Below are positions 41,012-43,366 of a DNA stretch of 64,000 nt, one piece after another (within the stretch, counting starts at the first letter, position 1; every line of letters starts with the position of its first letter). The stretch covers positions 2,340,914 to 2,404,913 of the forward strand of contig BAOK01000001.1 of assembly GCA_000509225.1 (NCBI GenBank). Reading direction: 5' to 3'. The position numbers and the translations under genes were made by a program. This DNA is from Parvibaculaceae bacterium Mf 1.05b.01 (GTDB lineage Bacteria; Pseudomonadota; Alphaproteobacteria; Parvibaculales; Parvibaculaceae). The notes beneath the pieces were generated by a model that saw only the letters and a program-made list of their open reading frames with translations, searched no databases and was not told where the DNA came from.

Positions 41012-41024
41012 TAGGCTTGTTTTC
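41012..41024 (+). repeat. Left copy of 13-bp direct repeat (candidate target-site duplication)
   Basis: TAGGCTTGTTTTC, repeated exactly at 43354-43366. The two copies flank the transposase and passenger genes. A 13-bp identity at these spots is not expected by chance, although the IS1595 family usually makes 8-bp duplications. Confidence 0.65.
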
Positions 41025-41027
41025 AGA

Positions 41028-41046
41028 ATTATATACTTGACGTACC
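41028..41046 (+). repeat. Left terminal inverted repeat
   Basis: ATTATATACTTGACGTACC; its inward TTGACG (41037-41042), followed 17 bases later by CATATG, may also be the transposase promoter. Three bases separate it from the left direct repeat. Confidence 0.65.
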
Positions 41047-41087
41047 AACCCTCCGTACCCATATGAGTTGGGCAAGGAGATAAGCCA

Positions 41088-42056
41088 ATGTTCGACCTCA
41101 CAAACGAAATCTATCAAGACAAAAACAAGGCCCGCGAACACCTAGAGGCTATCCATTGGCCCGATGGTCCTGTCTGCCCTCACTGCGGCAATTGCGACCA
41201 AGCCCGCATTACAAAGCTCTCAGGCAAATCAACCCGTCCCGGCGTCCACAAGTGCAAAGAGTGCCGCAAGCCCTTCACTGTGACCGTGGGCACCGTCTTT
41301 GAGCGCTCTAAAGTGCCCCTCAACAAGTGGGTGCTGGCAACTCACCTTATGGCCGCATCCAAAAAAGGCATATCTGCCCACCAGCTACACCGCATGTTGG
41401 GCGTCACCTATAAAACCGCTTGGTTCATGTCTCACCGCATCCGCGAAGCCATGAAAGAGAATACCGATACATCCGGCCCCCTAGGTGGCGAAGGTAAGAC
41501 CGTAGAAGCCGACGAAACCTATATCGGCAAGCGTGACCGCCCTTATGTCTCTCCCCAGCGTAAAGGCCGTCCCTACCTCAAGAACCGCAAAGGCGGCATC
41601 CAGAAGCGTACCGTTGTTGCTCTGGTAGAACGCGGCGGCAAAGTCCGCTCTTTCCACATTGACCAAGCGAACAAAGAAACTGTGCGTGACATTCTTGTCC
41701 GCAATGCAGACCGTAAATCAAACCTCTATACCGACGAGTCCCGCCTCTACACAGTGACAGGCAAGGAATACAACTCCCACGAAACAGTCAATCATTCCGC
41801 CAAGGAATACGCTCGCGGCAAGGTTCACACCAACACCATCGAGAACGTCTTCTCTGTCTTCAAACGCGGTATGCGTGGCATCTATCAGCATTGTGGCGAG
41901 GCTCACCTGCACCGCTATCTCGCTGAATTTGACTTCCGCTATAACCACCGTTCAGCCCTGAAAATCTCAGATAACGAACGCGCCAACGCCCTTTTGGCAG
42001 GTGCCCGCGGTAAGCGCCTGACCTATCGGCGGACTGGTGAAGCCACGCTCGCTTAA
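41088..42056 (+). CDS. IS1595-family transposase (ISXO2-like DDE)
   Basis: 322 residues after AAGGAG. An N-terminal zinc finger (CPHC at 30-33, CKEC near 60) precedes a helix-turn-helix (HQLHRMLGVTYKTAWFMSHR) and the DDE catalytic core: VEADETYIGKR, NLYTDESRLY and TNTIENVFSVFKRGMRG. The frame is intact and all catalytic regions are present, so the element may be active. Family assigned from these blocks. Confidence 0.92.
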   Translation: MFDLTNEIYQDKNKAREHLEAIHWPDGPVCPHCGNCDQARITKLSGKSTRPGVHKCKECRKPFTVTVGTVFERSKVPLNKWVLATHLMAASKKGISAHQLHRMLGVTYKTAWFMSHRIREAMKENTDTSGPLGGEGKTVEADETYIGKRDRPYVSPQRKGRPYLKNRKGGIQKRTVVALVERGGKVRSFHIDQANKETVRDILVRNADRKSNLYTDESRLYTVTGKEYNSHETVNHSAKEYARGKVHTNTIENVFSVFKRGMRGIYQHCGEAHLHRYLAEFDFRYNHRSALKISDNERANALLAGARGKRLTYRRTGEATLA

Positions 42057-42162
42057 GCAAAAAGCGAGGGCTTTCCAGCGATGGGCTAAGCGTCAGAAAT
42101 AGACGCCTGTGATTCTCTATCTCATCCGGTATAGTGAAACCAGAGATTCAGATGGAGAAGTC

Positions 42163-42378
42163 ATGGCAGAAGACCGAATAACCGTCACTTGCGCCAAGTG
42201 CAAGAGCACAAAGTTTTCATTTCCCAACGATCCACCCAAGGACGATGACATCATCACTTGCTCCGAGTGTGGAAATGTCGTCGGGAGATACGCTGATATC
42301 AGAGCAGCGGCTATGGACGCAGCTAAGGCCGAGGTCGGCAAGATCGTTTCCGATGTTTTTGGCAAGCTCAAGAAGTAG
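42163..42378 (+). CDS. Small zinc-ribbon protein (transposon passenger)
   Basis: 71 residues from ATG 42163 with GGAGAAG upstream. Two CxxC pairs (CAKCKS and CSECGN) separated by a polar loop form a zinc ribbon; a helical C-terminal tail follows. It resembles small zinc-binding proteins seen on phages and transposons. Function unknown; DNA or RNA binding is possible. Located 106 bases after the transposase, same strand. Confidence 0.75.
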   Translation: MAEDRITVTCAKCKSTKFSFPNDPPKDDDIITCSECGNVVGRYADIRAAAMDAAKAEVGKIVSDVFGKLKK

Positions 42379-42429
42379 GTCGGGAGGAAATGACTCAAAT
42401 GCAATCACAATCTTTCGATTCATAACAGC

Positions 42430-42453
42430 AAAAAACCCGCCTATTTGGTGGGC
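42430..42453 (-). terminator. Terminator at the end of the 48-residue gene
   Basis: On the minus strand CCCACC-AAATA-GGCGGG is followed by TTTTTTG. The stem has one A-C mismatch and contains the stop codon. On the plus strand the same stem is fully paired with one G-U, so it may act for the zinc-ribbon gene too. Confidence 0.6.
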
Positions 42454-42587
42454 TTCTCCTTTTTCGGTTTCTGTTCTGGCTTCTTGCCTTCTTTCTCCCC
42501 CTCTTTCGGTGGAGGCGGAGTCTTCAACATGCGGCGGAGTATCTCGTCACCTTCCTCCGTTTCTTTATTATCTTTAGGATTTGGCAT
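42441..42587 (-). CDS. 48-residue basic/acidic small protein with RRMLKTPPPP motif
   Basis: ATG 42587 to TAG 42441-42443. A TGGAGG site stands seven bases before the start. The chain begins MPNPKDNKETEEGDEILRRM, continues LKTPPPPKEG and ends in a Lys-rich tail. The RRMLKTPP element recalls a widespread class of tiny uncharacterised bacterial proteins. A hairpin and T6 run (42430-42453) terminate it at the stop codon. Its start codon overlaps the plus-strand gene's start codon by two bases. Too short for routine gene finding. Confidence 0.7.
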   Translation of the reverse strand: MPNPKDNKETEEGDEILRRMLKTPPPPKEGEKEGKKPEQKPKKEKPTK

Positions 42588-43185
42588 GTCTAAACCTCCA
42601 GATATTGAGCTCCCCCCTCTGACGGGGCCAAGCCGGGAAGAGTGTGATTACACGCTCGGCGTATATATGAGGGTATGGGGCGCTGTAGAAACAGCGGTAT
42701 CTCAGCTTATTCAAAAATTCCTGGATACAGACCCAATCTCCGCTCAAATAGTCATTCGGACCGTAGGGTCGATGCACGCCCAAAGAGAAATGGCTTCTGA
42801 GTTAGGACTTCATCGACTCGCTAAAGCTTCAGACCGACAAACCCTAAAGAAGCTAATGAGAAGACTAAAGTCAGCCAATACAAAACGAAATAGAATTGTT
42901 CATGGTGCATGGCAGCTAGTCATTGTCATGGGGGAGAAAACAAGGGCAACTCCACTTCGCGCCAAATCTCAAGAGTGGATTCGATCTTACACTCCATCCG
43001 AAGACGCTGTCTTTCAGGAGCTCATGCAAGGAAAGAACAAAAAACTGAATGCCGCATATAAATTTCCACCGGATTCAATTATCTCTCATGCAAAATCTTC
43101 GCAGTCTCTAGCTGAAGACATCATAAGTTTCGCTAACGCGGCACAATTACGGCCCCCGAGAATCCCGCAGCACGTAGAATGGTGA
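42586..43185 (+). CDS. Unknown passenger protein with HEPN-like R-x4-H motif
   Basis: 199 residues from ATG 42586 (TAGGAT upstream). Mostly helical. RNRIVHG at residues 101-107 gives R-x4-H, the active-site pattern of HEPN ribonucleases, following a basic helix (LKKLMRRLKSANTK). No other domain is recognised. Codon use is more AT-rich than in flanking genes, indicating transfer. It starts back-to-back with the 48-residue gene and its end overlaps the 65-residue gene by 53 bases. Confidence 0.7.
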   Translation: MSKPPDIELPPLTGPSREECDYTLGVYMRVWGAVETAVSQLIQKFLDTDPISAQIVIRTVGSMHAQREMASELGLHRLAKASDRQTLKKLMRRLKSANTKRNRIVHGAWQLVIVMGEKTRATPLRAKSQEWIRSYTPSEDAVFQELMQGKNKKLNAAYKFPPDSIISHAKSSQSLAEDIISFANAAQLRPPRIPQHVEW

Positions 43186-43330
43186 GAACGGCTTCTTGCA
43201 AATCATACGCTGGCGCCCCCTCACGCAAATCTTCTCCAAGCTCTTCTCGCAATAGAAAGATAAAGTGCGCCATATCATCCGGCGCTATCTCAATATCCGC
43301 AGTTTCTTTGGTTTTCTCTGAATTGCTCAT
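43133..43330 (-). CDS. 65-residue acidic hypothetical protein (passenger)
   Basis: Acidic chain (IEIAPDDMAHFIFLLREELG, then YDLQEAVLTILRAAGF). No family recognised. ATG 43330 lies five bases inside the right inverted repeat, leaving little room for a promoter within the element. Ribosome site weak (CCGGAT). It overlaps the end of the plus-strand neighbour by 53 bases, so one of the two could be shorter than drawn. Confidence 0.5.
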   Translation of the reverse strand: MSNSEKTKETADIEIAPDDMAHFIFLLREELGEDLREGAPAYDLQEAVLTILRAAGFSGAVIVPR

Positions 43331-43351
43331 ATCCGGTACGTCACATATATC
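43323..43351 (+). promoter_or_regulatory. Candidate outward promoter at the right end of the transposon
   Basis: TTGCTC at 43323-43328, 17-base spacer, TATATC at 43346-43351. It would start RNA near 43358, about 25 bases before the S24 repressor gene, whose own upstream region was displaced by the insertion. Confidence 0.35.
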
Positions 43352-43353
43352 AT
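43335..43353 (-). repeat. Right terminal inverted repeat
   Basis: On the minus strand ATGATATATGTGACGTACC; 16 of 19 bases match the left repeat. It abuts the right direct repeat with no gap. Confidence 0.65.
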
Positions 43354-43366
43354 TAGGCTTGTTTTC
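43354..43366 (+). repeat. Right copy of 13-bp direct repeat
   Basis: TAGGCTTGTTTTC, identical to 41012-41024. It ends 17 bases before the start codon of the S24 repressor. Confidence 0.65.

What the first reader, a model, noticed from the sequence alone, without database searches (positions are those of the whole stretch)
42441..43185. Divergent genes whose start codons overlap by two bases
In CATG at 42585-42588, the minus-strand ATG (42587-42585) and the plus-strand ATG (42586-42588) share two bases. Each gene's ribosome site (TGGAGG on minus, TAGGAT on plus) lies inside the other's coding sequence. Both transcripts must therefore cross the partner's 5' coding region and would be mutually antisense. 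That architecture suggests built-in reciprocal control, as expected of a toxin and its antidote or an addiction-type module on a mobile element.
Basis: partly seen in the sequence, partly recalled or inferred. Interest (0 to 1): 0.72.

Follow-up and report, generated by a model that had tools for sequence, protein, structure and literature searches.

The report
Transposon cargo with fused start codons
A small jumping DNA element carries two genes that point away from each other and share two bases of their start codons, and the same fusion recurs in related elements whose larger gene is unrelated, which suggests a reusable docking point for toxin-like cargo.

Summary
The CATG overlap at 42585-42588 is real. 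Taken alone it is not beyond chance (24 CATG sites in the window have comparable open frames), but comparison makes it meaningful. The pair lies in a 2.3-kb IS1595-family transposon with passenger genes (about 41025-43353, 13-bp direct repeats; three congeners have the empty site). The 48-aa gene belongs to a family unnamed in Pfam and NCBIfam (core DExLRRMLxTPPxP), convergent with the transposase in every IS1595 element where it was found. The 199-aa gene looks like a HEPN RNase (E35, RNRIVH), but no profile confirms this. Of 34 elements with a divergent partner, 23 keep the exact overlap (8 of 12 in held-out loci), although partners include HEPN-like, DUF3800, PBECR3-like, HNH-like and unnamed families. 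In four elements with co-directional cargo, the cargo's stop overlaps the small gene's start instead. Two congeneric elements (91% identical transposase DNA) share only the ends, the transposase and a 55-nt stretch of the small ORF. The toxin/antidote reading is partly supported: mobile, toxin-like cargo, both frames conserved. Against it, two loci have an intact HEPN gene beside a broken small ORF, and 15 of 29 HEPN loci lack the small ORF.

The parts
41012..41024 (.). left copy of the 13-bp direct repeat TAGGCTTGTTTTC (target-site duplication)
   Evidence: and sequence; single copy (one base different) in congeners G005 and G008
43354..43366 (.). right copy of the direct repeat
41025..43353 (.). 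IS1595-family transposon with passenger genes, about 2329 bp (ends good to 1-2 bases)
41027..41046 (.). left terminal inverted repeat, 17 of 20 pairs
   Evidence: I3
43335..43354 (.). right terminal inverted repeat (last base may belong to the direct repeat)
   Evidence: I3
41088..42056 (+). IS1595-family transposase, 322 aa
   Evidence: Pfam PF12762 1.5e-35; NF033547 1.2e-61
42163..42378 (+). 71-aa putative zinc-binding passenger protein, ECs_2282 family
   Evidence: NF047912 6.7e-13, above cut-off
42428..42455 (-). terminator-like hairpin formed by the last codons and stop of the small ORF plus a T run; a weaker terminator-like site faces the other way (42436-42452 +)
   Evidence: a similar hairpin at the same place in Tepidicaulis marinus
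42441..42587 (-). 48-aa small ORF of an unnamed family, core GDEILRRMLKTPP
42503..42557 (-). 55-nt core of the small ORF, 94.5% identical to the element of congener G006 while both flanks differ
42585..42588 (.). CATG in which the two start codons overlap by two bases
   Evidence: conserved
42586..43185 (+). 199-aa HEPN-like protein, putative RNase
   Evidence: no Pfam or NCBIfam match
42886..42903 (+). codons for RNRIVH (R101-H106), candidate HEPN Rx4H motif
   Evidence: motif definition from PMC3710099
43133..43330 (-). 65-aa ORF at the right end, 3' end overlapping the HEPN-like gene; similar ORF at the same place in Tepidicaulis marinus
   Evidence: no family match

Best explanation
Shown: the pair is cargo of a young IS1595-family transposon. 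The 48-aa gene is part of the element's recurring backbone: always convergent with the transposase, and conserved in its middle while the cargo changes. The divergent gene is one of several unrelated toxin- or defence-like cargo genes that abut the small gene's start codon: start against start in CATG when divergent, stop on start in four of six elements when co-directional. Inferred: the HEPN-like protein is a metal-independent RNase acting as a growth-arrest or abortive-infection effector. A terminator-like hairpin separates it from transposase transcription, so its promoter should lie inside the small gene. The two genes are then transcribed against each other and the small gene tunes cargo expression, by opposing transcription and perhaps through its protein. 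Cargo is exchanged by recombination that leaves the small gene's core in place, so its start codon works as a docking point.
For: Transposon: Pfam/NCBIfam, inverted repeats, direct repeats and empty sites in G005, G008 and G006 (target sequence read base by base in G005 and G008). Census: 55 transposase copies in 40 of 385 class genomes; inverted repeats scoring 14 or more in 39 of 58 loci (at least two perhaps spurious); the small ORF at E<0.01 in 23 of the 54 fetched census loci plus the window, all antiparallel to the transposase. Overlap: of 46 small ORFs classified, 23 exact CATG, 11 divergent at other spacings, 8 co-directional (two doubtful), 4 none. Held-out loci not in the profile: 8 of 12 divergent pairs exact (leaving out L183). 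One more exact case on a named plasmid, Mesorhizobium sp. AR02, whose annotation starts the partner at that ATG. Unrelated partners at CATG: HEPN-like, DUF3800 2.2e-4 and PBECR3 4.5e-4, HNH_5 0.024, an unnamed family (L115, L179, L213). Small ORF codes: codon-position entropy 0.96/0.61/1.59. Mosaic. HEPN: G, E, R, H kept in 14-15 of 15 homologues.
Against: No expression data. Promoter-like sites are at chance level (2 found, 1.3 expected). The small gene's strong ribosome site in the window is not conserved. Partner ribosome sites inside the small ORF are better than random windows but not better than codon choice alone predicts (chi2 36.5, 28 df). No profile confirms HEPN for the window protein; the structure model is too poor to use (mean pLDDT 39); hhalign to a Pfam-confirmed HEPN gave probability 13%. 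The terminator-like hairpin over the stop was found by script in only 3 of 27 small ORFs, the window's own being missed because of one mismatch. The mosaic rests on one congeneric pair.
Confidence: 0.58

Rival explanations
1. [quoted passage not shown] the family neutralises many unrelated toxins, as the Panacea domain does.
For: Partners of the small ORF are mostly toxin-like: HEPN-like, RelA/SpoT 1.6e-13, NYN 2.1e-6, GmrSD plus HNH, PBECR3-like. Related IS1595 elements are annotated with VapC/PIN genes. The Panacea antitoxin domain is described as hyperpromiscuous (PMC10440598, abstract). TA pairs are known transposon passengers (PMC7157771, passages).
Against: An intact HEPN frame beside a broken small ORF in L201 and L212; 15 of 29 HEPN loci without such a small ORF; the small ORF has only one short conserved block; divergent rather than operonic; some partners (DUF3800, L115-type) are not known toxins.
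Confidence: 0.25
2. Cargo hinge only: the small gene is a transposon backbone gene and the overlap is the scar or optimum of cargo exchange and compaction, without regulatory meaning.
For: Mosaic against G006 with only ends, transposase and 55 nt of the small ORF shared; unrelated partners with the same overlap; ATGA or one-base stop/start overlap when cargo is co-directional, L063, L066, L070, L078; no codon-level selection on the buried ribosome site.
Against: Does not say why two bases of overlap beat other spacings; 11 of 34 divergent pairs keep gaps or other starts.
Confidence: 0.35
3. A solitary defence effector: the HEPN gene works alone or with host factors and the small ORF matters only to the transposon.
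For: HEPN homologues, nearly all with an intact motif, and no small ORF in 15 of 29 loci.
Against: Does not explain the recurrent start overlap.
Confidence: 0.25
4. One of the two frames is spurious.
For: In this window such open frames are common.
Against: Both proteins conserved; the small ORF shows coding constraint.
Confidence: 0.03

Closest known systems
IS1595-family insertion sequences with passenger genes (transporter IS, tIS; Siguier et al. 2009, seen only as cited in PMC11891212)
   Same: Transposase family, terminal inverted repeats, passenger genes behind the transposase; ISNha5 is cited there as carrying a regulator
   Different: The recurrent small gene, the fused starts and the nuclease-rich cargo were not found described in the papers searched
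Toxin-antitoxin pairs as passengers of Tn3-family transposons (PMC7157771)
   Same: Toxin-like gene pairs, including HEPN-MNT, carried by a transposon
   Different: Known antitoxins there; here no known antitoxin family and a head-to-head start overlap
HEPN superfamily RNases (PMC3710099)
   Same: Rx4H with N after R, upstream acidic residue, presumed toxin or Abi role
   Different: No significant profile match for the window protein; partner is not MNT
Panacea hyperpromiscuous antitoxin (PMC10440598)
   Same: One small family next to many unrelated toxin-like genes
   Different: Different family; no neutralisation shown; divergent arrangement

Membership tests
IS1595 family | IS1595-type DDE transposase | tested here: met
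   PF12762 1.5e-35, NF033547 208 bits against cut-off 75
IS1595 family | terminal inverted repeats and target duplication | tested here: met
   inverted repeats; 13-bp repeat and empty sites. A duplication of about 8 bp for the family is recalled, not checked
transporter IS (tIS) | passenger genes not needed for transposition | tested here: met
   four ORFs besides the transposase; different cargo in relatives. Dispensability for transposition not tested
HEPN superfamily | Rx4-6H motif with a polar residue after R | tested here: met
   RNRIVH at 101-106; R and H invariant in 15 of 15
HEPN superfamily | profile or fold match | tested here: inconclusive
   none for the window protein; weak for partners in other elements; HEPN_MAE_28990 9.6e-14 for L079 cargo; model pLDDT 39
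HEPN superfamily | RNase activity | not testable with these tools
   needs a biochemical assay
HEPN-MNT (type VII) toxin-antitoxin | MNT nucleotidyltransferase partner | tested here: not met
   no MNT match among the neighbours scanned
Type II toxin-antitoxin | protein antitoxin that neutralises the toxin | not testable with these tools
   broken small ORF beside an intact HEPN frame in L201 and L212 speaks against
Type II toxin-antitoxin | bicistronic operon | tested here: not met
   divergent genes; co-directional only with other cargo

The most novel reading that the evidence does not exclude
The TPP-motif small gene is a previously unnamed backbone gene of IS1595 transposons that acts as a universal cargo dock and silencer. 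Unrelated nucleases and toxin-like genes are swapped in precisely at its start codon, and its product or its opposing transcription keeps them in check during transfer, a transposon counterpart of a hyperpromiscuous antitoxin.
Probability: 0.2. Interest if true: 0.85.

Novelty: new variant of a known kind. Interest (0 to 1): 0.62.

Why it matters
If the pattern holds, IS1595 elements are small vehicles that pick up, hold and spread toxin- and defence-like genes through one standard joint. That gives a simple handle for finding new bacterial defence genes (look beside the small ORF) and a testable case of natural selection on an exact start-codon overlap between opposite strands.

Tried and rejected
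A strong, conserved ribosome site for the small gene: present in the window, not in relatives. Selection on synonymous codons of the small ORF to make the partner's ribosome site: not significant. A general terminator at the small gene's end: found by script in 3 of 27, and in the window by folding, with one mismatch. Structure of the 199-aa protein: pLDDT 39, so no fold search was run. PDB search with the HEPN profile: best E 0.066, nothing convincing. Relatives of the HEPN protein in plasmids and phages: none. First scan of genome contigs with the single protein: none; the second, with the two-sequence alignment, gave only Tepidicaulis marinus. Rfam: none. The G028 match (E 7e-4, one stop inside) was taken as chance. 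Rows left out of the overlap count: L082 (no ATG start for the small ORF) and L170, L174, L175, L180, L181 (no usable ATG, broken or long unrelated frame). L111 (small ORF E 0.62), L162, L167, L169 and L182 are doubtful rows kept in the count. Several census contigs end before or within the cargo.

Full report
What is there. The window holds CATG at 42585-42588, in which the minus-strand ATG of a 48-aa ORF (42441-42587) and the plus-strand ATG of a 199-aa ORF (42586-43185) share two bases. By itself this is weak: 24 of 341 CATG sites in this window have open frames of at least 190 and 45 codons in opposite directions.

The setting. Upstream on the plus strand is an IS1595-family transposase (PF12762 1.5e-35; NF033547 1.2e-61), then a 71-aa putative zinc-binding protein (NF047912 6.7e-13). 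Inverted repeats lie at 41027-41046 and 43335-43354, just inside a 13-bp direct repeat. Three genomes of the same genus lack the element: their two flanks lie next to each other, and in G005 and G008 the target sequence was read as a single copy. So the pair is cargo of a young transposon of about 2.3 kb. IS1595 elements with passenger genes are a known kind (PMC11891212, passages, citing Siguier et al. 2009, which I did not read).

Relatives. In 40 genomes of the group the 199-aa protein has one clear relative, in Tepidicaulis marinus (55% identity), in an IS1595 element with the same gene order and with the start codons separated rather than overlapping. The 48-aa protein has relatives in four other genomes, three of them with different partners. 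I therefore took the transposase as an unbiased handle: 55 copies in 40 of 385 genomes of the class. I fetched 54 of them besides the window and also examined four loci already chosen for their small ORF. Inverted repeats with score 14 or more bound 39 of these 58. The small ORF was found at E below 0.01 in 23 of the 54, always antiparallel to the transposase.

The overlap recurs. Across 46 small ORFs classified, 23 have a divergent partner whose ATG overlaps exactly as in the window, 11 have a divergent partner at another spacing, 8 have a co-directional frame ending near the small ORF's start, and 4 have neither. Among loci found with a profile that had not seen them, 8 of 12 divergent pairs are exact. 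If exact overlap had a 10% chance per pair, 23 of 34 would have probability 1e-15; shared ancestry makes that too small, but the partners are not one family. By motif or Pfam they are HEPN-like (RNxxxH-type motif in 16 of the first 22 partners), DUF3800 (L176), PBECR3-like (L172, below cut-off), HNH_5-like (L087, weak) and an unnamed family (L115, L179). In a named plasmid of Mesorhizobium sp. AR02 the annotated start of a partner is again that ATG, while the small ORF is not in the gene table. When cargo runs the same way as the small ORF, its stop overlaps the small ORF's ATG by four bases in L063 and L066 and by one in L070 and L078, and ends 6 and 11 bases before it in L064 and L079. In that order these are NYN, an unscanned frame, DUF3800, GmrSD plus HNH, RelA/SpoT and HEPN_MAE_28990 cargo. 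The start codon of the small gene is thus the joint to the cargo in either direction.

Mosaic. The window element and that of congener G006 share 997 nt of transposase region at 91%, about 90 nt at the left end and 59 nt at the right end. Between these they share only 55 nt, the core of the small ORF, at 94.5%. Everything else has been replaced.

What the proteins are. The small protein is coding by codon-position entropy (0.96, 0.61, 1.59; the rows were chosen by protein profile, so the conserved residues are partly by choice) and matches no Pfam or NCBIfam family beyond chance-level single hits. The 199-aa protein shows the HEPN signs described in PMC3710099 (passages): R-N-x3-H and an upstream acidic residue, kept across 15 partners. 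No profile, solved structure or usable model confirms it for the window protein. HEPN is therefore likely, not shown.

How it may work. A terminator-like hairpin covers the small gene's stop, with a weaker site facing the other way. If active, it cuts the cargo gene off from transposase transcription and puts its promoter inside the small ORF; the two messages would then be antisense to each other. This is inference: promoter-like sites are at chance level.

Against toxin and antidote. In a search with a HEPN profile over 357 genomes (37 places), 29 loci were examined: 13 have the small ORF opposite (9 of them training members), one more (L195) has a diverged 63-aa ORF at CATG, and 15 have none. 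In L201 and L212 the CATG joint is present and the HEPN frame intact but the small ORF is broken (frameshift-like; early stop). Sequencing error cannot be excluded. An obligatory antitoxin would not be expected to decay first.

Verdict. The stronger finding is a reusable joint between a transposon backbone gene and unrelated toxin-like cargo. Searches of the open literature for IS1595 with passenger genes, toxin-antitoxin, HEPN, defence, or overlapping divergent starts gave no paper describing it (listings only); most subscription papers are not held.

Noticed in passing
43133-43330 (-); L116 and other HEPN elements: A 65-70-aa ORF at the right end of the element overlaps the 3' end of the HEPN gene; small ORFs sit at the same place in L005, L059, L060 and L114, some starting inside the terminal repeat. 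It may be a third cargo gene or an alternative antitoxin.
   Followed up: partly
L088, L094, L098, L101: IS1595 elements without the TPP small ORF carry another small protein type (core like ARELGxDExxxxFD), next to HEPN-like or PIN-like cargo.
   Followed up: no
L104 (element coordinates 796-1246): The same element holds an ORF pair that looks like HicA and HicB (recalled, not scanned) besides the small ORF/HEPN pair.
   Followed up: no
L064, L065 and window 42163-42378: Short CxxC zinc-ribbon-like proteins recur directly behind the transposase.
   Followed up: no
L005 and L114 element ends: Elements lie in palindromic CCCTCCCC/GGGGAGGG sequences that look like terminators, suggesting a target preference.
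   Followed up: no
L186 (G177) and L104 (G264): 3408 nt containing the element are 99.97% identical in two genomes of different families; recent transfer or contamination of G264 (10%).
   Followed up: partly
L069 and L095: Small proteins resembling Cas2/VapD-like ferredoxin folds (recalled) as further cargo.
   Followed up: no
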